Shown in pieces: positions 5,367-27,507 of a DNA stretch of 28,383 nt (position 1 is its first letter; each line of letters begins with the position of its first letter). The stretch covers positions 410 to 28,792 of the forward strand of contig MZZL01000035.1 in the NCBI GenBank assembly GCA_002749535.1, in the 5' to 3' direction. The notes beneath the pieces are model-generated. The model worked only from the letters and a program-made list of their open reading frames with translations, was not told the DNA's origin and did no database searches. The DNA is from Apophysomyces variabilis. Its lineage: Eukaryota; Mucoromycota; Mucoromycetes; Mucorales; Mucoraceae. Both the position numbers and the translations under genes were made by a program.

Positions 5367-5929
5367 TCATGACCTTTTTTTTTTCCCCACTGCCAACTTC
5401 TTTCTAGTATTGCTTACGTAGTCTTTTCTTTCCTCTTTTTTCTTTTCTTCCTTTTTCTCTATTTCCTTGTTGTTATTTTTTGTTTGACTTATAAATTATT
5501 TTAGTAAACTTTGCCTCATCCTTGTTATACTTCTACCTTATAAAGTTGTCCCAATTAACTATATAATGCCCCAATCACATCCTATCATACCAAGCATCAT
5601 AGTATCAAAGGACCATATAGTTATAGTGATCTCATCCCATCCGTTTTAATAAATTCAGTCCTGTTAAGAACGTATTTGCTATTGACCATAATCACCTTTA
5701 GAACACTGTCTAACTTACAAATATATTATACTGAAACCTTTCGAATTCATAGTAAATCCCACTTAACAAGTAGACATTCACAAATACTAGAAGTGTAGAC
5801 ACATTAGCATCACCAGAAGTAACTTTTGCTTGAAGCGATCAGTTTCTAAAGCAGAATATCAGATATTACTAAAAAAAATACAATAGCTACCATTAGTGAA
5901 CTTTTGCCACGCTAATGAATTAATCACTA
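5367..5929. other. Noncoding 3' region of the first tnp2-type element
   Basis: A pyrimidine-rich stretch (about 5377-5470) is followed by ordinary AT-rich sequence up to the repeat array. No gene is seen. Confidence 0.5.
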
Positions 5930-6158
5930 CTTTTAGAGCATATTAGCTACTTTAGCACGTTCACTACTTTTAGAGTAGATTTACTAATTTTAGTGTAGCT
6001 TTCACTACTTTTAGAGTAGACTCACTACTTTTAGTATACACTTTACTACTTTTAGTGAGAAATTCACTACTTTTAGTGATTTTACTACTTTTAGTACAGA
6101 TTTACTACTTTTAGTGCGTTTTCACTACTTTTAGTGCGTTTTTACTACTTTTAGTGAG
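5930..6158. repeat. Subterminal array of CACTACTTTTAGTG units
   Basis: About a dozen copies of a 14-bp unit with consensus CACTACTTTTAGTG are spaced roughly 20 bp apart; several are degenerate (TTTACTACTTTTAGT, CACTACTTTTAGAGTAG). Each unit is nearly palindromic because CACTA and TAGTG are complementary. The spacer varies and the unit is conserved, so the unit is the constrained part. CACTA-superfamily transposons are known to carry subterminal repeats that bind their own proteins. The position just inside a CACTA-type terminus supports that role here. Confidence 0.8.
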
Positions 6159-7230: not shown

Positions 7231-8736
7231 CTATTTTAAATTGTTCTCTTTCATATAATCATTAATAATATCATCAGTATTAAACTCAGAATGTTTAACC
7301 CAAGTATTATCTTCATCACTATATCCTAACCATTTTACATAGAAAATATATTTACCATAATTATCTACCATATGATTTACTATTTTTTCAACTTCATATA
7401 TATTTTCATTAGATTTATTTTTAATTTGATCACGCCTTCTTTTTTTAGAGCTTTCCTTTATATTATCTAATTTTTCCATATATGTATCTTTATCTTCCAT
7501 TTCAATATCTTCTATATTAAGGTCTAAAATTTTAAATTGTAATTCCATCATTTCATTATATTCTTTTTTTACTTTTTGTTCATTACTAAAAACTAAATTA
7601 ATTTTATTTATTTTTGATGGAAATTCAAATCTATCACTATACCAAAGTTTATGATGAGGTTTAACTTCAATATCATAATTTTCGCATAAATTATTTATAT
7701 TTTTCAATAAACAAGCAGTTCTAAATTGTAAATTATAATATTTTTTATCAGACATTTGAATTGCCGCTTTATTGTTATTAAATCTATTAAATTTTGAAGC
7801 AAGAACAGAAAATTGGTTTTCTATTTCAGACCTAAATGAGCCAAATTTACTATTAAAATTTAATTCTGTCGCAGTTAATTTATTATTAATTTCTTTTCTA
7901 ATTGGATATACAAAATTTCTATGACTAAAATCAAATCCATATTCACTAGAATTTTCAATAAATTTTTCAACGAATAAATTATAACCTCCATCCATTGCTA
8001 TACAATCATATTTATTAATATCTTTATATAATTTCATATTTAGGAACATAGTTCCATCATTACCTTGTGCACATTTTTCACTATTAGATATAAATAATAT
8101 ATTTTTATTACTATCTACTACAATCTGAGTTCTTAATCCTGTACCTTTTAATTTATAAGAATATAATTTTTTTTTACTTTCACTTGGATTATAATATTTT
8201 ATTTTACTATCGTGACCATCAATATATAATGTAACATTTTCGAAACCTTCAGGATTATATAATTTCGCTGCTATTATTCTAATTTTTATGTTTGAAAATA
8301 AATTTTCTAAATCTAATTTTACTTTTTTATTTAAATTTGCATAATTTGAAATCCAAAAATCTTTATATAAATCATAAAATGTAGTATAAGGTATAATATT
8401 TGTCATTTCTGGTCCACTTCTACCTGAAACAATATGGTATAATAAAATTAAACCTTTTTCTATTTCTCTATAAGGACCTGGATATTCTTTATTTGAATAT
8501 AATACTGTCAAAAAATAATAAACAGGAATATAACCTAATTTTTCTAATAATTCATCTTTAATTTCTTTCATAATTTCATTATCTTTTATATCTTTTATTT
8601 TAGTGCGGTGATTAAATCTATTCCTAATTTCTGGCCATTGTTCATCTAAAAAATTCCATTTATTTAATATTAATTTATCTAATTCATCTTTTAATTTATT
8701 TTTTAATCCTATATTGATGCTATTATCAATATCCAT
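7231..8736 (-). CDS. DDE (DDE_Tnp_4-like) transposase with C-terminal chromodomain
   Basis: An intact, intronless 501-residue frame from ATG 8736. The central domain looks like the DDE_Tnp_4/IS5-Harbinger group: likely catalytic D173 (TLYIDGHDSKI), D249 (CIAMDGGYN) and E306 (SEIENQFSVLASKFNRF). Residues 1-160 are helical and may bind DNA. A basic nuclear-localisation-like run KKRRRDQIKNK lies at 431-441. Residues 446-500 form a canonical chromodomain: IYEVEKIV, YVKWLGY, NTW and a closing acidic helix, keeping the Tyr/Trp/Tyr positions of the methyl-lysine cage. This suggests a transposase that reads histone H3 methyl marks to choose sites, as chromoviral integrases do. Harbinger relatives need a second protein; the gene at 6636-7148 is the candidate. 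The family assignment is by motif only. Confidence 0.82.
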   Translation of the reverse strand: MDIDNSINIGLKNKLKDELDKLILNKWNFLDEQWPEIRNRFNHRTKIKDIKDNEIMKEIKDELLEKLGYIPVYYFLTVLYSNKEYPGPYREIEKGLILLYHIVSGRSGPEMTNIIPYTTFYDLYKDFWISNYANLNKKVKLDLENLFSNIKIRIIAAKLYNPEGFENVTLYIDGHDSKIKYYNPSESKKKLYSYKLKGTGLRTQIVVDSNKNILFISNSEKCAQGNDGTMFLNMKLYKDINKYDCIAMDGGYNLFVEKFIENSSEYGFDFSHRNFVYPIRKEINNKLTATELNFNSKFGSFRSEIENQFSVLASKFNRFNNNKAAIQMSDKKYYNLQFRTACLLKNINNLCENYDIEVKPHHKLWYSDRFEFPSKINKINLVFSNEQKVKKEYNEMMELQFKILDLNIEDIEMEDKDTYMEKLDNIKESSKKRRRDQIKNKSNENIYEVEKIVNHMVDNYGKYIFYVKWLGYSDEDNTWVKHSEFNTDDIINDYMKENNLK

Positions 8737-8861
8737 TTTAAATATATATATTATTCAGTTTTTATTTATATTTTAGTTACTATAGAAATATATCCATCAT
8801 TTAATTAATAAAAATTCAGGTGATACCGATTTGTCTCCGTGGCAACATCTCAAAACAACAA

Positions 8862-8869
8862 TTAATAAA
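8862..8869. repeat. Left target-site duplication TTAATAAA
   Basis: TTAATAAA abuts the left terminal inverted repeat and is repeated exactly in direct orientation at 27500-27507 next to the right one. Eight bases is within the range known for MULE insertions. Confidence 0.85.
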
Positions 8870-9019
8870 GGGATTTGCCTCAGACACTCCCCTCAGGCAC
8901 TCCTCCCCCAAATTATTTGAGCGCCGTTATGATAAAGTGGATGCTGCTTGATATATAAGCCAGTAAGAATATCAAGAAATAGCAGAGAAATAAAGCACAG
9001 GTAGCATCCAAACAACTAA
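8870..9019 (+). repeat. Left terminal inverted repeat, 150 bp
   Basis: Matches the reverse complement of 27350-27499 with 6 mismatches by hand count. It contains an inward-pointing TATATAAG at 8952-8959 and an AATAAAG, so it could hold a promoter. Similarity stops sharply after AAACAACTAA. Confidence 0.85.
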
Positions 9020-10474: not shown

Positions 10475-13010
10475 TTAGTTATCTAAATTTGCTAACAGTC
10501 CCAATTCTACTTCTTTGCATGGACGCATTTTTGGCCAAATAATGTATGTTCTGCCAGATGCTGCTCAGATCCATCCTGTCATACACACAATGTCACCAGC
10601 TCATATGACGCAAAGTTGATGTTCAGCTGTTGGTTGGATGTACGGGCGTCTGTCACCTGTAAGGTTGACTTTGAATATTCTCACCAAAGCAAGAAGCTCA
10701 ACTTGCTGTTCTTGCTCATGTTGGAAATATAATAACGCTTCGCTGAAGTAAATGTGTGGCTGTCTCTTTATGCGACAGTTCCACAGATTGCGGTCGACAT
10801 CAATCTCCATCTTCACCATATACGTCCTTTTGGCGCCTGCTCTAAGAAGTGAAATGTGACAACCCATGACTTCTCCGTGCATGGTCTAAAGACGTGCTGC
10901 TATGGTAATATGCGAGTTGATTTCACCTTTGCCTTTGTCATAAATTGACCAGAATCGGCGCAATAGATGTTGTAAATCAGTGCTACTCACAGTGCCAATA
11001 GCAACATTGCGTGTAAAAGGGCCCCATAACTCAGGTGCGTCAGGATCATTGCTGTTATTGGTTAGCACTTCAGCCTTTTGTCGGCTCTCTGTAGGAACAC
11101 AGATCTGCAGGTCATCTTCATCATAGACACGCTTAAAATGCCGCGAAGCTGCTAAGACGTGCATGACATTTGCAGCATTCTCACTTGGTTTAACATGTGA
11201 TTTGATCCTTAAAGAGTATTCGCCTATTACTCTTTCCATTGGACGTGCACTTATTCCACGCAAGGGTCCCAGGCATTTGATTGCAGCAGCCATGTGTGTC
11301 AAGTAGTGCTGGGTGATGTTGAACACCGTGGTGCTGATAGCAGCTTTTTTCACTTGCCCTAGAAGATAGGCATGCCATGAATTCACACCTGCAGCAATTG
11401 CAAGTAGGTCTCCGCTCCTCAATTTCCATTGCTGTGTAAGTTTGCAGGCCTTGACAAGACTGAGTATGGCGGCTTTCACTTGACGATCTTGAATGTTATC
11501 TAGCACGACAGTTGGCACAATGTACAGCAAAAATTCGATCCATTCAACAGCTTTGAAGTGTCCCGAGTTCACTTCAATATCCTTCCAGCTGCTGTTGAAA
11601 GTAGGAGGAATCCAATCATGAAGATGTACGATTTGTTGTCCTATCTTCTTTCTGGTTGGACTGTCCAGGTACAGCGGATGGTTTGTTCCATATTTTCTTA
11701 ACATCAAACTCCAAAGCTGTTTGCCAACACCATGGCCTATCAGGTGCATTTCATCCATACCAAAAAAGAAGACATCGTTGAACGTGAGTAACCCAGCGAA
11801 TTCTGACCTCTCAGAGATCCCTTTGCAAATATTACCATTTACCAAAGACTCTTTCATTCTATACTGGAAAAGACTGGTTCGTGGGACAAAGCAGTAGCAC
11901 CCCAGATCATTCTGATGTCCCTCGACTACTGAACGTCGTGTGCCCGCGATGACGCAAATCCAGCAACTGTACTCGTGCGTATGGCCTCTATGGTGCATAA
12001 GCTTTGCAATACTAGGTATATCTCCCGTCGCAAACAAGAGATGAACCTTTACTTGGTATTGCTGGTCACCTTTTTTCACATACAGCCCAGTCATTTGCAT
12101 TCGTTTCAACTGAGAGATTGTCAGTGCTAGGAAGCTAAATAGGTCTTGCTTCTTTTTCTTGTAGCCGGGAACAATGCAGACTTGTACCATATTCTGCTTC
12201 TCATAACGTAGTTTTGGATGCAGGTTCATGATAACCACATGCACAATGGTCATTGACGTAGTACTGCGTACGTGAGGCTGGAATCCATCGATAAACAAAC
12301 CCAAGGTAATATCCAAATCTCCAGGAAAGTGATCTTGCACCAACATCTTATAAGCACTACCATCGAAAACATCCTCATAGACACCCTCTGGATTTCATGG
12401 TCTTTTGCTACAATATTTGAGATCTTCGCGAGTATCATCGTCTAACACCATCAATGCCAACTGCCTGGAAAGGGAAAGTTGCTTGACGATAGAATGCGGT
12501 TTCTTTTCATTGTTACAACGCTCGTTGAGGTATGAATATGTTACCAGCCTACCTGCACACTATCTGTTTCGATGTAACAGTCACTGCTACAATGGCAGCA
12601 TGTTGTCTCTCGATCATCATCTGCGAACATCTTACAGCCGTTTCTGCAAACATCATAGGACGTCAGATCCACAGGATACCTTTTAGAGAACTCTTTGGAG
12701 GCGCGATAATGGGATAGAAGTCGGGGTAGCTGATGACGATCATTCCATTCATTGATAAGCTTGACCTGTTCGTCGTAGTACTCTCTAGAAGCGTTGTTTT
12801 CTTTAGCCAGCTGGAACAGCTTCAGGCTAAAGATAGTGGCTAGATTGGGCTTGCCAGGATCAACAGTGTCAAATATCTCTTGGATTGGCTGTGTAGTTTG
12901 TCCATCACTTTGCTTTGTTGGGTCTGGTAGATTAGGATCTTGCTGCATTTCCATGTTGACAGGCAACCCTGCGATTGTCTCAATGGATGTGTCTTCATGA
13001 TCGCTGTCAT
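10475..13010 (-). pseudogene. tnp2-type (Plavaka/CMC-like) transposase, 5'-truncated
   Basis: Reads leftward from 13010, where the 5' end is cut by a Ty3 LTR. Order: acidic N-terminus, cysteine cluster YDVCRNGC...ETTCCHC, a 50-nt intron (12552-12503, CAG|GTAGGC...AAAAG), LGLFIDGFQPHV with the first catalytic Asp, KVHLLFATGDIP, YSCWIC, FFFGMDEMHLIGHG with the second Asp, SGHFKAVEWIEFLLYIVPT, and MERVIGEY with the likely catalytic Glu. The C-terminal part ends RTYIIWPKM before TAA 10475. In-frame stops: TGA 12395-12397, TAG 10886-10888, TGA 10601-10603 and TGA 10565-10567. The 486-residue core between the first two is intact. It is less decayed than the relic at 2136-5366 and is clearly the same family. 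Missing the start and interrupted by stops, it should be inactive. Confidence 0.82.
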
Positions 13011-13362
13011 TGTCATATCTGACATGATTACATCACTATATTCAGTGGATAAAACATCAGGTCTAGACTGTCAGTGAACATATCAGCTATAATGCCTGTA
13101 TGGATCAGGTTACACTAACATCTTCATAATCTATTCATCTGTTGCTGGGACCCTAGCGGACACAGAATATCAAAAGACAGAAGATTAACGTGTCATTACT
13201 GATCATACAGATTTTACAAAAGATATTAGTAACTACCCTAACCCGCTTTTACCTGCACGCGTTTCTAAAGATATTTAAAGAGAACAGTCATTCGTGAAAT
13301 AAAGAACATCTTTTTCAGTCTCGCTTATTCTTAGCGTCCTGTTATTTTCATTTTATACGTCA
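13011..13362 (+). repeat. Ty3/Gypsy LTR 1 (5' LTR of copy A), 352 bp
   Basis: Starts TGTCATATCTG and ends TATACGTCA. It aligns without gaps to the LTRs at 18947 and 24150, all three 352 bp long. By hand it differs from LTR 2 at 12 sites and from LTR 3 at 9. ATATTTAAAG (13271-13280) is a TATA-like box and AATAAA (13298-13303) a likely poly(A) signal. It replaces the 5' end of the tnp2-type transposase. Confidence 0.92.
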
Positions 13363-13397
13363 TTTTTTTTAAGCGAATACTTATTTCCCCCTTATCC

Positions 13398-15582
13398 ATG
13401 ATGTCCCAAACAAATTTGTCAAGCCCTCTATCCTCATATGCTCAAGTCGTTGCTGGAACAAAAAGCATATCTAGCCAAGTCACTGAGNNNNNNNNNNNNN
13501 NNNNNNNNNNNNNNNNNNNNNNNNNNNNNNNNNNNNNNNNNNNNNNNNNNNNNNNNNNNNNNNNNNNNNNNNNNNNNNNNNNNNNNNNNNNNNNNNNNNN
13601 NNNNNNNNNNNNNNNNNNNNNNNNNNNNNNNNNNNNNNNNNNNNNNNNNNNNNNNNNNNNNNNNNNNNNNNNNNNNNNNNNNNNNNNNNNNNNNNNNNNN
13701 NNNNNNNNNNNNNNNNNNNNNNNNNNNNNNNNNNNNNNNNNNNNNNNNNNNNNNNNNNNNNNNNNNNNNNNNNNNNNNNNNNNNNNNNNNNNNNNNNNNN
13801 NNNNNNNNNNNNNNNNNNNNNNNNNNNNNNNNNNNNNNNNNNNNNNNNNNNNNNNNNNNNNNNNNNNNNNNNNNNNNNNNNNNNNNNNNNNNNNNNNNNN
13901 NNNNNNNNNNNNNNNNNNNNNNNNNNNNNNNNNNNNNNNNNNNNNNNNNNNNNNNNNNNNNNNNNNNNNNNNNNNNNNNNNNNNNNNNNNNNNNNNNNNN
14001 NNNNNNNNNNNNNNNNNNNNNNNNNNNNNNNNNNNNNNNNNNNNNNNNNNNNNNNNNNNNNNNNNNNNNNNNNNNNNNNNNNNNNNNNNNNNNNNNNNNN
14101 NNNNNNNNNNNNNNNNNNNNNNNNNNNNNNNNNNNNNNNNNNNNNNNNNNNNNNNNNNNNNNNNNNNNNNNNNNNNNNNNNNNNNNNNNNNNNNNNNNNN
14201 NNNNNNNNNNNNNNNNNNNNNNNNNNNNNNNNNNNNNNNCTCTATCCTCATATGCTCAAGTCGTTGCTGGAACAAAAAGCATATCTAGCCAAGTCACTGA
14301 GAACATGAATGTGGACGCTGCAAACACACCATTGTCAGCTGAACAACGTACCGATGTGGCCATTAGGGAGGTTTCTGAACGTCTAGCTACCCTTGGTGAG
14401 AGAATTGCCTCGTCATCCGCATCAGCTGAGGAGAAAGAAGCTGCTAGACAAGCTTATCATGAAGCCAACCAAGACTTGGACTTGCTCTTACAAACTAAGA
14501 GTAAATTGGTATCGCCAAAAAACAAGCATCATCAAGTAACCTACCGGCCACCCTGTATTGTTCCCAAGGATCTTCCCCTGCTACAGTGGACAGGAAATGT
14601 GGTAGACCCTACCAAGATGGTGTTTACATCAATCCAGGAATGTTTGGACAAGTTAGAAGATATTGTCTTGTCATATGGCCAAGAACTTGATGATAGCTGG
14701 CATCGTTTGTTGCCACGTACACTCTCTTCTGAACAACGCTCGTGGTTTGATGCCCATCTTCAGAAGGTGCCTCATTTGCCATAGTCGTATGCACGAAACA
14801 CTCTTTTGCAAAAGTACAGTATCAATGATGCAGAACGTCAAGCAAGCTTTACTCAAGAATTGATCACAATGAAAATGTCAAGAAATGAATCTGTGGAGAA
14901 GTACACTGACCATTTCCATAAGGTGCGCCGTGAGGCAAGTGTAAATGATGACTGAGTAATGGCTATCCTCTACACAAACTCCTTGCTTTCTGAGCTGTCT
15001 CAGCAAGTCAAACTTGCTCAAGTCAATTTACCCATTGAACAAAGGTGCACGGTAGACCAGGCTGCTGCCATGGCAAGAGCTCTTTATCCGCAAGTTGTCC
15101 GTCCTGTCTCTTCTGGCACCCCTACAGGATCTTCAGAACTGAAAGGTTTAAAATTGGTTTCACGCGCTCCTCAGCATAAAGATCAACACTGCCGTATTCA
15201 CGGTAAAGGTTCACATTCAACAAACGAATGTAGGGTTTTGGCGGACACTCTCAGAACAGTCCAACCCAGCCAACATATTGACAAGAACACTCGTTCTTCT
15301 GCTACTGGGACAACCACACCCCAACCACCCACTGCTTCCCGTCCTCCAGCAATTTCCAACAACACAAAATTGTGTTACAAGGGTTGTGGCGCGACCTGGA
15401 CCCATGGTCATGTGTGTAACGTCGATCCTAACAACCCCAGGAATTCTTTGGCGATCCGCACAACGCGTGTTGAGGACAGCCCCTCTGACAGCACCAATGA
15501 TATTCAAGAAGAAATTGAAGAAGACATTGAAATGGCAGCCAAAGAGATTGACACTGCGATCGCGGATTCTTGCAGCATGTGA
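13398..15582 (+). pseudogene. gag: Gag of Ty3/Gypsy copy A (gap inside, two stops)
   Basis: Starts at ATG 13398 (or the adjacent ATG 13401). Capsid-type sequence (LPLLQWTGNVVD, SWFDAHL, MSRNESVEKYTD) is followed by two zinc-binding patterns near the C-terminus: HCRIHGKGSHSTNEC and CYKGCGATWTHGHVC. The N gap interrupts it, but removing the gap plus one copy of its 62-bp flanking duplication restores one continuous frame of the same length as copy B. Stops: TAG 14782-14784, where copy B has Trp, and TGA 14953-14955, where copy B has Arg. The frame ends SCSM-TGA at 15580-15582. That TGA is formed exactly where copy B's 71-nt segment is absent. Confidence 0.85.
13488..14239. other. Assembly gap (752 N) with duplicated flanks
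   Basis: The 62 bp just before the gap (13426-13487) are identical to the 62 bp just after it (14240-14301). The offset of 814 nt changes the reading frame by exactly the amount needed to join the two gag pieces in frame. Contig ends overlap, so the true gap length is most likely zero or negative. Confidence 0.9.
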
Positions 15583-18500
15583 CCAAAACCTACGAGCTCT
15601 TCTGGATTCAGGTGCCACAGTTAGCACTGTTTCTCGTGCCCTTTGTTTAGAAAACGGTTGGCAAATTCGCCCCCAAACAGGCAAAATAAAGCTTGCAGCT
15701 CAAAACCAATTTGTTTCGCATATTGGAAAGAATCCACCCATAAAAATTGTTTGCAATAACATTACAATCTACCACTCTTTCGAAGTGTTTGATCTAAATG
15801 ATCCTCTCGCCAATATTTGCATTGGTACTGATCTTATGACACGCCTAGGTATTCACTTCATTGGTTTACCTGTATGCTGGCACCAACCCGGTTTACCTAA
15901 AGCACCGGAAACTAAAGAACCTCAAGACGACCTTGAGCCAAACAATTCACCAGTTGGCACCCCCACTGAACGCACACTTTTAATGAAAACGATCCAACCC
16001 TTGCTGGATGAAAATCTAAAAATACCAAACTCTTCATTCTGTACCGTTCCAGAATCTATTGTCAGGTTAGACACCCCACCTAACCAAACTGCTTATCGAA
16101 GACAATACGATCTTCCCCACAAACTGCTACCTCTTTTACAAGAGCAAGTGAACAAATGGCTCACTGACGGCATCATCACCCGTGCACCAGTGAATACCAG
16201 ATGGAATAGCCCTCTAACTTTCGCACCAAAAAAGGACGCGTATGGCAATCTAACAGGCAGACGACCTTGCCTAGACCCACGCCACATCAACAATCTGCTT
16301 CCAGATGATCGTTTCCCACTTCCGTTAATTAATGACATCTTTCAGAAGATGCATGGCGCAACAGTGTTCTCCACACTTGACCTGAAAAATGCTTTTCATC
16401 GGTTTCAAATTTATGAACCTCACCAACACAAAACTGCCTTCACTGTCGATGGCATACAATACATGTTCTGCGGTTGTCCTTTTGGACTCAAATCTATCTC
16501 CTCAAAATTTCAACGCATTATGAATTATGTCTTTCACGGACTTAACTATGTTACTACGTTCGTTGACGATATCATCATCTTTTCCAAAACACTGGAAGAA
16601 CACACGGAACACGTTGCAGATGCAATCTGCCGTCTCACTGCTGTCAATCTCATATTCAATCCAGAGAAATGTCACTTCACGCAACACGCTGTTTATTTAC
16701 TTAGTTTCTGCGTGGATGCAGATGGTATTCGCCTTGACCCACGCAAGGTTACAAACGTCCAAACTTGGCCACAGCCCAAAACAGGCAAAGATATTCAAAG
16801 GTTTCTTAGACTTGTCAATTACTTCCAAGTGCACATACCTACCATTTCCACTCTTACGGCACCACTTGACAAATTACGCAATGCTGGTAGCCTTGAAAAC
16901 CTCTGGACATCACAGCACACTGATACATTCAATCGTGTCAAGGCAATTTTGGAGAAAGCTCCTATCCTCAGCCATCCAAACATGGATGAACCCTTCTCGG
17001 TTGCTACAGACGCATCCAACGACGGTATTGGCGCTGTCCTCTATCAAGTCATTAACAACCGCATTCATTACATCGGTTTCATGGCACGCTCCCTCAGTCG
17101 ATCAGAGCGCAACTATTCTGTCACACAACGTGAATTACTTGCCGTTGTCTACGCCCTCAAAAAGTTTCACAAATTTCTTTGGGGTAACAAATTCACGCTC
17201 TACACTGATCATCGCGCTTTAACTTACCTGCACACCCAGGAAATTGCCAATCCAATGATGATCAACTGGCTTGATACCATTTGTGATTATACTTACCGTG
17301 TGGTACATCGTCCTGGCATCGCCAACGTTTTACCGGATGCTCTCTCGCGTCTGTTTGCACCACCTGTTCCATTTTCAGAGGGGGGTATTTCCACAAACAC
17401 GTCATCTCATGACAATTCAGGAACACCTTCATCTACTCCCACACACGTTCTCACGCAACGCTTACTGAAACCACATGAGTATATGACACCTCCTACAGCA
17501 GAACGACAATCACTGCTGGAGAAAGCGCATCTTCTTGGCCATTTCGGTTCAGATGCTATTGTGAATGCTTTACACAGTGACGGAATCCACTGGAGCACTA
17601 TCAAACAAGACGCACTTAACACAGTAGCCAAGTGTATTGACTGTCAACGATTCAACATCGGAAAACACGGTTATCATCCCTTACGACACATAACCGCAGA
17701 CCAACCTGGAGACCACTGGGCTATTGACCTTGGTGACTTCAACACTACCACTATCAACGGTAATAACTTTGTATTAGTTATGGTTGATGTATTTTCACGC
17801 TTTTGCATTTTACGAGCATTACCAGACAAATCCGCACTTTCTGTCGCTAGGCAACTTATTCAAGTATTCTGCGACTATGGTTTCCCAAAAGTCCTGCAAT
17901 CAGACAATGGCACTGAATTTGTCAACGAAGTCATCACACTCGTTACAGAACACTCAGGAATAGACCACAGACTGGTAACACCATATCATCCACGTGCAAA
18001 CGGCGTCGCAGAACGATAGGTAAAAACCATGAAAGAGGTTGTTGTCAAAAGATTGCAAGGTAAGAAACAAGATTGGGATTTGTATTTACCAAGTGCACAA
18101 CTTGCTATCAATCTGAAAATTTCCTCTTTGCACAACACACGTCCTTTTGCGTTGATGTTTGCCCGTCAACCAAACAATTTCGAGGACTATCGTAAAGTAA
18201 AAGTAGGAAATGTACAACAGACTTCTGATGATACTCGGGCAATGACCAAACGCCTCAAACAAATGGAACGAGTAGTGATACCTGCTATCCATGAACGCAT
18301 TAAAACAATGCAGAATAAACAAAGCAACAAGTTCAACAGCAATCATCGCATTGTTGAATTTCCTCCTGGAAGCAAGGTCATGATCGTGAACGTGTCTAGA
18401 AGCAGTAAAACAGACCCAAGATACGAAGGACCATTCACTGTTCTGAGACAGAACAAAGGAGGCAGCTATACTTTGGTTGATGAGCAGAACATGTTGCTTC

Positions 18501-18793
18501 CACAAGATGTTGCACCATCTCATATGAAACTTATTTCGCCTGATACAGTAGTTTCAGACGACTACTATGAAGTGCAGAACATCGTCAATCACAGGGAAGT
18601 ACGCAAAGGACACTACCAGTACTTCGTCAAATGGAAAGGTTATAAAGACGACGAAAATACTTGGCAGAACCCTGAGGATTTTAACGATCCTGCTATTATT
18701 GAAAGGTATTGGCAACGCCAATCAGGTACTGGCAAAAGGAAACAGGCCCAACAATCAGGACCTTCTACTACCAAACGTACCAAACGCATGTAG
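15581..18793 (+). pseudogene. pol: Pol of Ty3/Gypsy copy A: PR-RT-RH-IN-chromodomain
   Basis: Opens directly after the gag stop, in the +1 frame. Aspartic protease ALLDSGAT near 15605; reverse transcriptase with LDLKNAFHRFQI and FVDD (16559-16570); RNase H ATDASNDGIGAVLY near 17010; integrase zinc motif H-x3-H...CIDC near 17530-17645; integrase core DHWAIDLG, QSDNGTEF and NGVAER (D, D, E); GPF/Y module (RYEGPFTVL); chromodomain near 18565-18710 (YYEVQNIV, FVKWKGY, NTW). One internal stop, TAG 18017-18019, replaces the Trp codon TGG present in copy B and sits just after the catalytic Glu. With no Gag-Pol fusion frame and this stop, the copy should not produce full-length Pol. From about 15762 on it is nearly identical to copy B. 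Confidence 0.9.
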
Positions 18794-18930
18794 GCAAGTC
18801 TTTTTCCTCTACACTTTTTTCCCACTGGGTTTTTTCTGAGGTTTTTTATTGACGCGCCACAGTATTATTATCTAATACTTTCAACCATGCTTTTACTACA
18901 TCAATTACTATCTTTCCAACGCTGTCAAGA
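18794..18930. other. 3' untranslated region of Ty3/Gypsy copy A
   Basis: Noncoding sequence between the pol stop and the polypurine tract, nearly identical to 23997-24133 in copy B. Confidence 0.6.
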
Positions 18931-18946
18931 AGCTGGTGGGGGGTAA
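18931..18946 (+). promoter_or_regulatory. Polypurine tract of copy A
   Basis: AGCTGGTGGGGGGTAA lies immediately before LTR 2; an identical tract precedes LTR 3. This is the expected place for plus-strand DNA priming. Confidence 0.75.
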
Positions 18947-19298
18947 TGTCATATCTGACATGATTACATCACTATATTCAGTGGATAAAACATCAGGTCT
19001 AGACTGTCAGTGAACATATCGGCTATAATGCCTGTATGGATCAGGTTACACTAACATCTTCATAATCTATTCATCTGTTGCTGGGACCCTAGCGGACACA
19101 AAATATCAAAAAACAGAAGATTAACGTGTCATTACCAATCATACAGATTTTACAAAAGATATTAGTAACTACCCCAACCCGCTTTTACCCGCACGCGTTT
19201 CTAAAGATATTTAAAGAGAACAGTCATTCGTGAAATAAAGAACATCTTTTTCAGTCTCGCTTATTTTGAGCATTCTGTTATTTTCATTTTATACATCA
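18947..19298 (+). repeat. Ty3/Gypsy LTR 2, shared by copies A and B
   Basis: 352 bp, TGTCATATCTG to TATACATCA. It serves as 3' LTR of A and 5' LTR of B. It differs from LTR 3 at about 7 sites. In the block near its end (TTATTTTGAGCATTCTG) it agrees with LTR 3 rather than LTR 1, so at least its 3' part comes from copy B. Confidence 0.92.
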
Positions 19299-19337
19299 TT
19301 TTTTTTAAGTGAATACTCTTTTGTTCTTAATCCATCA

Positions 19338-22300
19338 ATGTCGCAACAATTGTCAAGCAGCCCTCTCTCTTCCCCTGTTTCTGTATCCTCTGAAATGGAT
19401 ATTGTGCGCCCCGTAGAGACTATAATAGAAGACAAGCTCTACATGCAAGGATCTAGTGAACAGCGCACTGAAGCTTCAATCAATGAGGTCTCCCTGCAAC
19501 TTACTGAGCTTGGTGAACAAATTGCATCCCCTTCTACTACTATGGAAGAAAAAGAAGCCGCTAGAAAAGCCTATGACCAGAAGAATCGTGACCTAGACAT
19601 GCTTTTGCAAACCAAGAAGAAGTTGGCCGGCCTTAAGGACAAGACCCACCAGTCTATGTACCGTGCTCCATATGTTGTGCCCAAGGAACTCCCTCTCCTC
19701 CAATGGACTGGAAATGTAGTGGATCAAACCAAGACCGTTTTCACTTCCATCCAAGAATGCCTGGACAAGTTTGAGGATATTGTTATTTTATATGGACAAG
19801 AACTTGACGAATGCTGGCACCAGATGCTGCCCAGGACTCTTTCTCCAGAACAACGTTCCTGGTTTGATGCACACTTGAGAAGAATGCCTCATCTTCCATG
19901 GTCATATGCTCGTAATGCTTTGTTGCAAAAATATAGCATTAATGATACAGAACGTCAAGCAAACTTCACCCAGGAACTCATCAGCATGAAGATGTCAAGA
20001 AATGAATCTGTAGAAAAGTACACTGATCGGTTCCATCGTGTACGACATGAAGCTGGTGTTGATGATGATCGCGTTACAGCAATCTTATACATTAACTCAT
20101 TGTTACTGGAAATCTCTCGTCAAGTCCATCTTGCCCAGGTCAACCTTCCTGTCAGTCAAAGATGTACTATTGATCAAGCTTCCTCCATGGCTAGAGCTCT
20201 GTATCCTCAGGTAGTTCAACAAAAGTCCCTTGGTGAACGCACAGGATCTTTGGAACAAAAGGTACAACGACCCTTTTCCTCTAATCAACGCGCTTTTCAG
20301 CGTAAGGAACAGCACTGCTGTGTCCATGGCAAAGGTACACACTCTACAAATGAGTGTAGAGTTTTGGCAGACACCCTAAGAACGATCCAATCGGGTCAAC
20401 GTGTTGACAAAGCACCTCAATCATCTCCTTCTAGTTCTGGGCCCAACAAGTCAGGCACCAACACATCTTCCTGCTCCCCATTGTCTAAAACAAATTCCGC
20501 TCTGTGTTACAAGGGTTGTGGATCTGTGTGGTCCCGCGGCCACAAGTGTAACGGTGACTCCAACACCACCACCAATACTATGGCGATCCGTTCTACACAG
20601 GTCCAAGAAACATCCACAGAAGAAACCAATCAGCAACAGGAGGACATCAATGAAGACACCAATATGATCGCAGAAGAGATTGACAAGGCGATCACCAAGT
20701 CGTGCAACATGTGTAAGTTACACACATCTCAGGATTATTCATTCCAAAAAACCGGTTCTTACTATGTGCCTATCACTTTACAGGACCTAAACTTACGAGC
20801 TCTCTTGGACTCCGGTGCTACTATCAGCACAGTTTCCCGTTCTCTTTGTTTGAACAATGGTTGGAAAATTTTACCCCAATCTGGGACAATAAAACTTGCA
20901 GCTCATAATAAATCTGTTTCGCGTGTTGGAAAGACTCCACCCATTAAAGTTGTTTGCAATAACCTTACAATCTACCACTCTTTCAAAGTGTTTGATCTAA
21001 ATGATCCTCTCGCCAATATTTGCATTGGTACTGATCTTATGACACGCCTAGGTATTTACTTCATTGGTTTACCTGTATGCTGGCACCAACCCAGTTTACC
21101 TAAAGCACTGGAAACTAAAGAACCTCAAGACGACCTTGAGCCAAACAATTCACCAGTTGGCACCCCCACTGAACGCACACTTTTAATGAAAACGATCCAA
21201 CCCTTGCTGGATGAAAATCTAAAAATACCAAACTCTTCATTCTGTACCATTCCAGAATCTATTGTCAGGTTAGACACCCCACCTAACCAAACTGCTTATC
21301 GAAGACAATACGATCTTCCCCACAAACTGCTACCTCTTTTATGAGAGCAAGTGAACAAATGGCTCACTGACGGCATCATCACCCGTGCACCAGTGAATAC
21401 CAGATGGAATAGCCCTCTGACTTTCGCACCGAAAAAGGACGCGTATGGCAATCTAACAGGCAGATGACCTTGCCTAGACCCACGCCACATCAACAATCTG
21501 CTTCCAGATGATCGTTTCCCACTTCTGTTAATTAATGACATCTTTCAGAAGATGCATGGCGCAACAGTGTTCTCCACACTTGACTTGAAAAATGCTTTTC
21601 ATCGGTTTCAAATTTATGAACCTCACCAACACAAAACTGCCTTCACTGTCGATGGCATACAATACATGTTCTGTGGTTGTCCTTTTGGACTCAAACCCAT
21701 CTCCTCAAAATTTCAACGCGTCATAAATTATGTCTTTCACGGACTTAACTATGTTACTACGTTCGTTGACGATATCATCATCTTTTCCAAAACACTGGAA
21801 GAACACACGGAACACGTTGCAGATGCAATCCGCCATCTCACTGCTGTCAATCTCATACTCAATCCAGAGAAATGTCACTTCACGCAACGCGCTGTTTATT
21901 TACTTAGTTTCTGCGTGGATGCAGATGGTATTCGCCTTGACCCGCGCAAGGTTACAAACGTCCAAACTTGGCCACAGCCCAAAACAGGCAAAGATATTCA
22001 AAGGTTTCTTAGACTTGTCAATTACTTCCAAGTGCACATACCTACCATTTCCACTCTTACGGCACCACTTGACAAATTACGCAATGTTGGTAGCCTTGAA
22101 AACCTCTGGACATCACAGCACACTGATACATTCAATCGTGTCAAGGCAATTTTGGAGAAAGCTCCTATCCTCAGCCATCCAAACATGGATGAACCCTTCT
22201 CGGTTGCTACAGACGCATCCAACGACGGTATTGGCGCTGTCCTCTATCAAGTCATTAACAACCGCATTCATTACATCGGTTTCATGGCACGCTCCCTCAG

Positions 22301-23996
22301 TCGATCAGAGCGCAACTATTCTGTCACACAACGTGAATTACTTGCCGTTGTCTACGCCCTCAAAAAGTTTCACAAATTTCTTTGGGGTAACAAATTCACG
22401 CTCTACACTGATCATCGCGCTTTAACTTACCTGCACACCCAGGAAATTGCCAATCCAATGATGATCAACTGGCTTGATACCATTTGTGATTATACTTACC
22501 GTGTGGTACATCGTCCTGGCATCGCCAACGTTTTACCGGATGCTCTCTCGCGTCTGTTTGCACCACCTGTTCCATTTTCGGAGGGGGGTATTTCCACAAA
22601 CACGTCATCTCATGACAATTCAGGAACACCTTCATCTACTCCCACACACGTTCTCACGCAACGCTTACTGAAACCACACGAGTATATGACACCTCCTACA
22701 GCAGAACGACAATCACTGCTGGAGAAAGCGCATCTTCTTGGCCATTTCGGTTCAGATGCTATCGTGAATGCTTTACACAGTGACGGAATCCACTGGAGCA
22801 CTATCAAACAAGACGCACTTAACACAGTAGCCAAGTGTATTGACTGTCAACGATTCAACATCGGAAAACACGGTTATCATCCCTTACGACACATAACCGC
22901 AGACCAACCTGGAGACCACTGGGCTATTGACCTTGGTGACTTCAACACTACCACTATCAACGGTAATAACTTTGTATTAGTTATGGTTGATGTATTTTCA
23001 CGCTTTTGCATTTTACGAGCGTTACCAGACAAATCCGCACTTTCTGTCGCTAGGCAACTTATTCAAGTATTCTGCGACTATGGTTTCCCGAAAGTCCTGC
23101 AATCAGACAATGGCACTGAATTTGTCAACGAAGTCATCACACTCGTTACAGAACACTCAGGAATAGACCACAGACTGGTAACACCATATCATCCACGCGC
23201 AAACGGCGTCGCAGAACGATGGGTAAAAACCATGAAAGAGGTTGTTGTCAAAAGATTGCAAGGTAAGAAACAAGATTGGGATTTGTATTTACCAAGTGCA
23301 CAACTTGCTATCAATCTGAAAATTTCCTCTTTGCACAACACACGTCCTTTTGCGTTGATGTTTGCCCGTCAACCAAACAATTTCGAGGACTATCGTAAAG
23401 TAAAAGTAGGAAATGTACAACAGACTTCTGATGATACTCGGGCAATGACCAAACGCCTCGAACAAATGGAACGAGTAGTGATACCTGCTATCCATGAACG
23501 CATTAAAACAATGCAGAATAAACAAAGCAACAAGTTCGACAGCAATCATCGCATTGTTGAATTTCCTCCTGGAAGCAAGGTCATGATCGTGAACGTGTCT
23601 AGAAGCAGTAAAACAGACCCAAGATACGAAGGACCATTCACTGTTCTGAGACAGAACAAAGGAGGCAGCTATACTTTGGTTGATGAGCAGAACATGTTGC
23701 TTCCACAAGATGTTGCACCATCTCATATGAAACTTATTTCGCCTGATACAGTAGTTTCAGACGACTACTATGAAGTGCAGAACATCGTCAATCACAGGGA
23801 AGTACGCAAAGGACACTACCAGTACTTCGTCAAATGGAAAGGTTATAAAGACGACGAAAATACTTGGCAGAACCCTGAGGATTTCAACGATCCTGCTATT
23901 ATTGAAAGGTATTGGCAACGCCAATCAGGTACTGGCAAAAGGAAACAGGCCCAACAATCAGGACCTTCTACTACCAAACGTACCAAACGCATGTAG
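19338..23996 (+). pseudogene. gag-pol: Gag-Pol fusion of Ty3/Gypsy copy B (two stops)
   Basis: From ATG 19338 (MSQQLSSS) one frame runs through Gag, protease, RT, RNase H, integrase and chromodomain to TAG 23996. Gag holds capsid sequence and two zinc patterns, HCCVHGKGTHSTNEC and CYKGCGSVWSRGHKC. The frame passes through 20713-20783 (YYVPITLQ), which supplies the first strand of the protease before ALLDSGAT. Two in-frame stops: TGA 21342-21344, where copy A has CAA, and TGA 21465-21467, where copy A has CGA. Downstream, RT FVDD, integrase D, D, E and the chromodomain are intact, including the Trp that is a stop in copy A. Gag is clearly diverged from copy A, but the rest is about 99% identical. 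Confidence 0.9.
20713..20783 (+). other. 71-nt in-frame intron (exitron-like) at the Gag-protease junction
   Basis: Begins GTAAGT and ends TTTACAG, with a TACTAT branch-like motif about 20 nt before the end. Copy A lacks exactly this stretch: its ...CATGT is joined to GACC... at 15580|15581. Unspliced, the segment is open and encodes protease residues (YYVPITL). Spliced, the 71-nt loss shifts frame and creates TGA at the junction, ending Gag. This fits an optional intron controlling Gag against Gag-Pol. Confidence 0.75.
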
Positions 23997-24133
23997 GCAA
24001 GTCTTTTTCCTCTACACTTTTTTCCCACTGGGTTTTTTCTGAGGTTTTTTATTGACGCGCCACAGTATTATTATTTAATACTTTCAACCATGCTTTTACT
24101 ACATCAATTACTATCTTTCCAACGCTGTCAAGA

Positions 24134-24149
24134 AGCTGGTGGGGGGTAA
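24134..24149 (+). promoter_or_regulatory. Polypurine tract of copy B
   Basis: AGCTGGTGGGGGGTAA immediately before LTR 3, the same as in copy A. Confidence 0.75.
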
Positions 24150-24501
24150 TGTCATATCTGACATGATTACATCACTATATTCAGTGGATAAAACATCAGG
24201 TCTAGACTGTCAGTGAACATATCGGCTATAATGCCTGTATGGATCAGGTTACACTAACATCTTCATAATCTATTCATCTGTTGCTGGGACCCTAGCGGAC
24301 ACAGAATATCAAAAGACAGAAGATTAATGTGTCATTACTGATCATACAGATTTTACAAAAGATATTAGTAACTACCCCAACCCGCTTTTACCTGCACGCG
24401 TTTCTAAAGATATTTAAAGAGAACAGTCATTCGTGAAATAAAGAACATCTTTTTCAGTCTCGCTTATTTTGAGCATTCTGTTATTTTCGTTTTATACATC
24501 A
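24150..24501 (+). repeat. Ty3/Gypsy LTR 3 (3' LTR of copy B), 352 bp
   Basis: TGTCATATCTG to TATACATCA. Its end is fixed by comparison: beyond 24501 the sequence changes from the T-run that follows the other LTRs to MULE coding sequence. Confidence 0.92.
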
Positions 24502-27349: not shown

Positions 27350-27499
27350 TTAGTTGTTTGGATGCTACCTGTGCTTTATTCCTCTGCTATTTCTTGATAT
27401 TCTTACTGGCTTATATATCAAGCGGCGTCTACTTTATCATAACGGCGCTCAAATAATTTGGGGGAGGAGTGCCTGAGGGGAGTGCCCGAGGCAAATCCC
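27350..27499 (-). repeat. Right terminal inverted repeat, 150 bp
   Basis: Reverse complement of 8870-9019 with 6 mismatches, including the inward-pointing TATATAAG. It ends in GGCAAATCCC at 27499. Confidence 0.85.
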
Positions 27500-27507
27500 T
27501 TAATAAA
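27500..27507. repeat. Right target-site duplication TTAATAAA
   Basis: Exact direct repeat of 8862-8869, immediately outside the right TIR. Confidence 0.85.

What the first reader, a model, noticed from the sequence alone, without database searches (positions are those of the whole stretch)
20713..20783. Optional intron at the Gag-protease junction may set the Gag to Gag-Pol ratio
Seen: copy B has a 71-nt GTAAGT...TTTACAG segment that is open in frame and encodes the start of protease. Copy A lacks exactly that segment (join at 15580|15581), and the join makes TGA, ending Gag one codon after ATG. Known: Drosophila copia uses splicing to make a Gag-only RNA; most Ty3/Gypsy elements use frameshifting or a single polyprotein. 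Inference: unspliced RNA makes Gag-Pol and spliced RNA makes Gag only, and copy A descends from reverse transcription of the spliced RNA. A coding intron used this way in a fungal Ty3 element would be unusual.
Basis: partly seen in the sequence, partly recalled or inferred. Interest (0 to 1): 0.87.

Follow-up and report, generated by a model that had tools for sequence, protein, structure and literature searches.

The report
Coding intron that makes Gag-only RNA
In a group of fungal jumping genes, a short stretch of protease code begins and ends like an intron and is missing exactly in a few genomic copies, so it is very likely an optional intron; removing it places a stop codon at the end of the coat protein, which would let one gene make either coat plus enzymes or coat alone.

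Summary
Copy B has an in-frame GTAAGT...TTTACAG segment of 71 nt (20713-20783); copy A lacks exactly that stretch and ends Gag at TGA. Copy A's three closest relatives (96.7-98.5% identical) all keep a 74-nt version. The pattern is much wider than this pair. I read the site in 101 loci of the same genome, sorted by me into 13 families of Ty3/Gypsy chromovirus relatives. Ninety keep GT...AG, seven (in five families) lack exactly that stretch, three have GT->AT, one is rearranged. Joining across the segment gives a stop within two codons in all 100 loci with a readable donor side, against 8.6% for other GT...AG pairs in the same frames. The stop is reached by different codon routes, in two families without any frameshift. 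Unspliced, the segment encodes the start of the protease. Best reading: a coding intron removed from part of the RNA; unspliced RNA gives Gag-Pol, spliced RNA gives Gag, and spliced RNA is occasionally reverse transcribed. No RNA reads were available: splicing rests on genomic excisions and conserved sites, and the Gag:Gag-Pol role is inferred. Barley BARE1 and Arabidopsis EVD (Ty1/copia) work alike; my searches found no such Ty3/Gypsy or fungal case.

The parts
20713..20783 (+). Coding intron of copy B (71 nt, GTAAGT...TTTACAG); unspliced it encodes the first residues of the protease (CKLHTSQDYSFQKTGSYYVPITLQ)
   Evidence: Sequence; kept in 12 of 13 family copies and, as a homologous site, in 13 families; Pfam protease matches begin within it
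20709..20714 (+). Donor context ATG T|GT: the donor falls after the first base of the TGT codon (phase 1)
20779..20786 (+). Acceptor context TACAG|GAC: joining T to GA makes TGA
15577..15587 (+). Intron-minus junction of copy A: ATG TGA; Gag stop made at the join 15580|15581
19239..21344 (+). Copy B single open frame, Gag into protease and the start of RT, ended by a TGA inside Pol
   Evidence: Pfam Retrotrans_gag just below its cut-off
21468..23996 (+). Copy B Pol remainder: RT, RNase H, integrase, chromodomain, in that order
14956..15582 (+). Last open stretch of copy A Gag; further upstream the Gag frame has TAG at 14782 and TGA at 14953, so copy A is decayed as well
15152..18019 (+). Copy A Pol frame (RT, RNase H, integrase); it lies in another frame than Gag since the join; chromodomain in 18020-18793
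13011..13362 (+). LTR 1, upstream of copy A (ends approximate)
18947..19298 (+). LTR 2, shared by copies A and B (ends approximate)
24150..24501 (+). LTR 3, downstream of copy B (ends approximate)

Best explanation
The 71-nt segment is most likely an optional spliceosomal intron lying inside the protease code: unspliced RNA would be translated as one Gag-Pol protein, while spliced RNA would meet a stop codon at once and give Gag alone. Shown directly by sequence: the segment is open in frame in copy B; a GT...AG segment is kept at the same place in 13 related families; seven copies in five families lack exactly it; joining across it gives a stop within two codons in each of the 100 loci with a readable donor side. 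Inferred: that the host spliceosome removes it from part of the RNA today, that both RNA forms are translated, and that the spliced form supplies the excess of Gag that particles need. Also inferred: spliced RNA is now and then packaged and reverse transcribed, which leaves Gag-only copies such as copy A.
For: (1) Copy A lost the segment: 3 of 3 closest relatives keep it. (2) Seven of 101 loci, in five of 13 families, lack exactly the GT...AG stretch; three of the seven (L067, L094, L118) have no placement ambiguity at all, L044 and L066 have 1 nt, L103 and L111 have 2 nt. (3) The three other kinds of gap of 15 nt or more in the same comparisons are not GT...AG. (4) Donor always after codon base 1, acceptor ending in CAG or TAG in 90 of 90, lengths 54-80 nt. 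(5) A stop within two codons of the join in 13 of 13 families, against 181 of 2093 (8.6%) other GT...AG pairs of 50-100 nt in the same 13 frames, or 16 of 141 (11.3%) with a stronger donor. (6) The stop is made by different routes: at the junction when the base before the donor is T, one codon later when it is not, and with no frameshift in F11 and F13. (7) Eleven of 11 families with Gln at the acceptor use CAG, although CAG is 34% of 275 Gln codons. (8) Unspliced frame free of stops across the segment and about 20 codons beyond in 77 of 90. (9) Two host tubulin introns are 60 and 81 nt, GTAAGT...TAG, a match in size and ends. (10) Segments hold 13% G against 22% in the flanks.
Against: No RNA evidence. 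Families are homologous and loci partly near-identical (80 distinct stretches among the 90), so counts are not independent trials. A YTRAY branch-like motif 15-40 nt before the acceptor is missing in 6 of 13 representatives, F1 among them. F12 has an unusual donor, GTATTC (12 loci, one of them GTATTT), and no loss copy. In eight of 13 families no loss was seen. Two copies of this family with exact losses in F10 (L103, L111) may be one event. Other species could be checked only as proteins.
Confidence: 0.87

Rival explanations
1. The segment is spliced, but to no benefit: cryptic or host-imposed splicing cripples the element, and the Gag-only product has no use.
For: Splicing removes the start of the protease and shuts Pol off; seven loss copies are dead ends for Pol.
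Against: A harmful intron should lose its sites, yet 13 families keep donor, acceptor and an immediate stop, and the stop is rebuilt by different codon routes. Selection against splicing could use silent changes such as CAG to CAA.
Confidence: 0.07
2. The losses are ordinary DNA deletions at a fragile or repeated site, with no splicing involved.
For: One or two bases of identity at the ends of four of the seven losses.
Against: Seven of seven losses match GT...AG exactly, with different letters and lengths (59, 68, 74 nt) in five families; three have no end identity at all; other gaps in the same comparisons have other ends.
Confidence: 0.02
3. The logic is different: spliced RNA is the main messenger and still gives some Pol by recoding at the splice-made stop (+1 shift in eleven families, stop readthrough in F11 and F13).
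For: After joining, Pol lies in the +1 frame next to a stop, or in frame behind one, as in elements that use recoding.
Against: The product would lack the residues that open the protease, where Pfam matches begin. The unspliced frame already gives Gag-Pol with no recoding in 77 of 90 loci.
Confidence: 0.03

Closest known systems
BARE1 of barley, Ty1/copia (PMC3735527; abstract and passages read)
   Same: One Gag-Pol frame; a small intron (104 nt) at the end of gag; splicing makes a stop just after Gag, and the RNA stays nearly full length.
   Different: Other superfamily. The stop comes three residues on. [quoted passage not shown] here 7 of 101 loci are such copies.
EVD of Arabidopsis, Ty1/copia (PMC8892269 and review PMC12786077; passages)
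   Same: Unspliced RNA for Gag-Pol, spliced RNA for Gag only.
   Different: The intron takes out the whole protease and splicing is coupled to early polyadenylation; no sign or test of that here.
Drosophila copia (as told in PMC3735527)
   Same: Splicing gives a Gag-only RNA.
   Different: It removes 2950 nt, nearly all of pol; here 54-80 nt.
Tyran and Varan of sunflower, Ty1/copia (PMC7730604; passages)
   Same: Spliced short RNAs carrying Gag frames.
   Different: Two introns plus early termination, and the Gag is truncated.
Ogre of legumes, Ty3/Gypsy (PMC6317226; passage)
   Same: A Ty3/Gypsy element with an intron removed from part of its RNA.
   Different: Opposite logic: splicing is needed to make the whole polyprotein, and the intron lies between protease and RT.
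Fungal Ty3/Gypsy elements such as Tf1, Tj1, MAGGY, Tcn1 (PMC10085805; passages)
   Same: Same superfamily, in fungi; Tf1 also has a single Gag-Pol frame.
   Different: Strategies named there are -1 frameshift, an in-frame stop, or a single frame; none of the passages names splicing.

Membership tests
Ty3/Gypsy chromovirus | Pol order RT, RNase H, integrase, with a chromodomain at the end | tested here: met
   Copies A and B. Not tested for F2-F13, which were matched over Gag end and protease only; P0005 of Phycomyces has a chromodomain.
Ty3/Gypsy chromovirus | Long terminal repeats | tested here: met
   Three LTRs in the window, 97.4-98.1% identical where aligned to LTR 3
Ty1/copia (BARE, EVD, copia) | Integrase before RT | tested here: not met
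   RT first, integrase after. It works like BARE1 but is not a member of that group.
Splice-made Gag RNA (way of working) | GT...AG segment at the end of gag whose removal gives a stop at once | tested here: met
Splice-made Gag RNA (way of working) | Spliced RNA seen in cells and on ribosomes | not testable with these tools
   No RNA reads on hand; seven exact genomic losses are indirect evidence
Recoding element (frameshift or readthrough) | Gag and Pol in different frames, or split by a stop, in the unspliced element | tested here: not met
   One frame across the border in copy B and no stop across the segment in 77 of 90 loci
Ogre-type intron | Splicing needed to make Gag-Pol continuous | tested here: not met
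   The unspliced frame is open; the join closes it

The most novel reading that the evidence does not exclude
A coding intron at the Gag-protease border is an old, lineage-wide way for Ty3/Gypsy chromovirus relatives of Mucoromycotina to make Gag. Thirteen families in one genome, diverged to 15-62% protein identity around the protease start, keep donor, acceptor and a splice-made stop by changing codon routes, and two of them make the stop without a frameshift. It arose apart from the copia, BARE and EVD solution, and, unlike BARE1, lets spliced RNA re-enter the genome as Gag-only copies.
Probability: 0.72. Interest if true: 0.8.

Novelty: new variant of a known kind. Interest (0 to 1): 0.76.

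Why it matters
Retroelements need many Gag per Gag-Pol. In the papers I read, splice-made Gag RNA is described for Ty1/copia elements, and fungal Ty3/Gypsy elements are given frameshift, readthrough or a single frame. A conserved coding intron in a fungal Ty3/Gypsy lineage would be a convergent answer with a very small switch (54-80 nt). The exact losses are a record of splicing that can be read from DNA alone. The losses also show how a single-frame element can turn into one with separate gag and pol frames in one step, and the system makes it testable how these fungi let unspliced RNA reach ribosomes.

Tried and rejected
Relatives elsewhere: a scan of viral contigs found none. Other fungi gave proteins only, so donor and acceptor letters could not be read there. 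Residues fit in Circinella minor P0002 (NCK..TLE) and P0009 (TGKY..TLQ), Phycomyces P0005 (QGK..VQSS) and Umbelopsis P0015 (NGK..LKNK), but codons are unknown. Models P0003 (Apophysomyces ossiformis) and P0011 (Circinella minor) lack residues from this site on and rejoin in frame further down; their basis is unknown and I do not count them as splice evidence. Two Lichtheimia Gag proteins (P0007, P0018) end alike in MDITGTHI, which may be the spliced product or a different arrangement; left open. Radiomyces P0004 ends shortly after the site with a tail I could not explain.

Host: three rRNA searches did not complete. The best Gag matches are to Apophysomyces ossiformis (94% over 38% of the query, 81% over 91%), so a related Mucorales species is likely but not established.

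Family labels F1-F13 are mine. An automatic assignment was skewed by query length; I reassigned loci by reading the junctions. A first alignment failed for loci on the minus strand and was redone. No tree was built. The alternatives (useless splicing, plain deletion, recoding of spliced RNA) were weighed and put low.

Full report
What the sequence shows. The window holds two chromodomain Ty3/Gypsy copies in tandem, LTR-A-LTR-B-LTR. In copy B one frame runs from Gag into the protease. At the border lies GTAAGT...TTTACAG, 20713-20783, 71 nt. In copy A the flanks are joined directly at 15580|15581 and Gag ends ATG TGA. The join can be placed in two ways, 1 nt apart; one is exactly GT...AG.

Which state is original. 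The host genome (38.7 Mb, 126 contigs, unnamed) holds 13 copies of this family at the site. Twelve keep the segment, six with 71 nt and six with 74; only copy A lacks it. Copy A's closest relatives L040, L041 and L057 (98.5, 97.0 and 96.7% identical over the aligned parts) all have 74 nt. So copy A lost the segment.

Wider survey. A protein search with Gag end and protease gave 111 matches. I held 102 loci around them (L033-L134). L134 has no readable junction and was dropped, which leaves 101. Nine matches were not fetched as loci of their own: three are further pieces beside fetched ones (C60, C104, C18), five begin at query residue 84 or later, past the site, and one weak match (C78, E 2.4e-5) that may reach the site was left out. 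I sorted the 101 loci by eye into 13 families. Result (with L103 and L111 resolved): 90 keep GT...AG; 7 lack exactly that stretch (copy A in F1, L067 in F2, L066 in F3, L094 and L118 in F8, L103 and L111 in F10); 3 have GT changed to AT (L055, L129, L133); 1 is rearranged upstream (L069). The script labelled L103 and L111 'degraded' because the aligner split an AG repeat; their letters equal the exact join. The 90 hold 80 distinct junction stretches, so they are not 90 independent histories.

Are the losses intron excisions? Each copy of twelve families was compared with its two nearest siblings for missing stretches of 15 nt or more. This gave the seven site losses (59, 68 or 74 nt) and three other kinds of event (19, 138 and 232 nt), none of them GT...AG. 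The scan is not complete: it did not list the 1.4-kb insertion in L043 that one search shows. L094 and L118 are 87.8% identical to each other over 271 nt, while each is nearer to an intron-plus copy (L094 to L087, 96.2%; L118 to L091, 89.6%), so these two losses look independent. L103 and L111 (97.6%) may be one event, although L103 is nearer to intron-plus L099 (98.9%). That makes at least six likely events.

What joining does. In each family the donor falls after the first base of a codon. Lengths are 59-80 nt with remainder 2 on division by 3 in eleven families, and 54 and 72 nt (remainder 0) in F11 and F13. Joining gives a stop in the junction codon or the next one in all 100 loci with a readable donor side; the script also says so for L069, where it means little. 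Other GT...AG pairs of 50-100 nt in the 13 representative frames do so in 181 of 2093 cases (8.6%), and in 16 of 141 (11.3%) with a stronger donor. When the base before the donor is T, the stop is TGA or TAA at the junction (representatives of F1, F2, F3, F8, F11, F13). When it is not, exon 2 begins NNT followed by AA, AG or GA and the stop comes one codon later (F4-F7, F9, F10, F12); F5 holds both kinds of copy. In F11 and F13 the acceptor lies 2 nt upstream of the usual place and TAA is still made, with no frameshift. These look like different solutions to one requirement.

Unspliced use. The segment is also coding. Of the 90 GT...AG loci, 77 have no stop across it and about 20 codons beyond. 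Pfam aspartyl protease matches begin inside it: PF13650 from residue 43 in F1, where the segment is residues 25-48 and the score is below the cut-off, and from residue 460 in F12, where the segment is 444-465 and the score is just above it. Between families the protease start is 15-62% identical.

Splicing signals. Donor GTAAGT in 51 of 90, GTAAGC 11, GTATTC 11, GTATGT 10, others 7; the acceptor ends in CAG or TAG in 90 of 90. Segments have 13% G against 22% in the flanks. A YTRAY motif 15-40 nt before the acceptor is present in seven of 13 representatives and missing in six, F1 included. Two introns of the host alpha-tubulin gene (L136 127-186 and 369-449; boundaries read from the translation with the tubulin sequence as I recall it) are 60 and 81 nt, GTAAGT...TAG.

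Mechanism. Committed reading: partial splicing. Unspliced RNA gives Gag-Pol, spliced RNA gives Gag. Shown: coding segment, conserved ends, exact losses, splice-made stop. Inferred: splicing in living cells, its extent, translation of both forms, the gain in Gag. The losses further imply that spliced RNA can be reverse transcribed, by transposition or by cDNA recombination; LTRs and target duplications of the six losses other than copy A were not examined.

Comparison. BARE1 of barley works in nearly the same way (104-nt intron, stop three residues past Gag; PMC3735527, abstract and passages). EVD, copia and two sunflower elements use related schemes (passages of PMC8892269; PMC12786077; PMC7730604); all are Ty1/copia. 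In BARE1, DNA copies of spliced RNA could not be amplified; here seven are seen. Ogre, a plant Ty3/Gypsy element, has the opposite logic (PMC6317226). The BARE paper also names CRR and Bagy2 as Ty3/Gypsy elements with spliced RNAs, for other ends. Fungal strategies named in PMC10085805 are frameshift, stop readthrough and a single frame. In the text of a 2011 survey of fungal LTR elements (PMC3248453) the words intron and splic- do not occur. Passages of a Mucor transposon paper (PMC11943222) and of a recoding review (PMC5009743) name no such case. Search listings 29, 30, 34, 38, 39, 73 and 74 showed none by title or abstract; the library lacks most subscription journals, so this is not proof of absence.

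Other species. Proteins from Circinella, Phycomyces, Mucor, Lichtheimia, Radiomyces, Umbelopsis, Phascolomyces and Apophysomyces belong to the wider group. Several keep residues that could encode donor and acceptor, but only DNA can tell.

Noticed in passing
window 14302-18946 against 19247-24149: Copies A and B are about 52-76% identical up to about 15690 and mostly 96-100% identical after about 15840, so one Gag end has been swapped onto a shared Pol, by template switch or conversion.
   Followed up: partly
window 13011-24501: Two elements share their middle LTR (LTR-A-LTR-B-LTR), as recombination between copies would give.
   Followed up: partly
window 13426-14301: An assembly gap of Ns (13488-14239) inside copy A Gag is flanked by the same 62 nt on both sides, probably an assembly artefact.
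   Followed up: no
window 7234-8754 (-): A DDE_Tnp_4 transposase that carries a chromodomain at its C-terminus.
   Followed up: no
window 10889-12394 (-): A Transposase_21 (tnp2) frame.
   Followed up: no
window 8862-9019 and 27350-27507: Inverted pair of 158 nt, 95% complementary, 18.3 kb apart, around the retrotransposons.
   Followed up: no
window 5924-6158; L057 past its protease: An array of near-palindromic units TCACTACTTTTAGTGA; the same motif stands where copy L057 breaks off.
   Followed up: no
L043 (C60:10939-12610): A copy with about 1.4 kb inserted just upstream of the donor, with 8 nt of the site repeated on both sides (query 103-110).
   Followed up: no
L053, L063, L070, L071, L096: The acceptor CAG has become TAG in copies of five families, which puts a stop into the Gag-Pol frame but leaves the acceptor AG intact; many changes in copies look like C to T or G to A (not counted).
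   Followed up: no
P0007 (Lichtheimia ornata) and P0018 (Lichtheimia corymbifera): Gag proteins of two species end alike in MDITGTHI at the place where the donor would lie.
   Followed up: no
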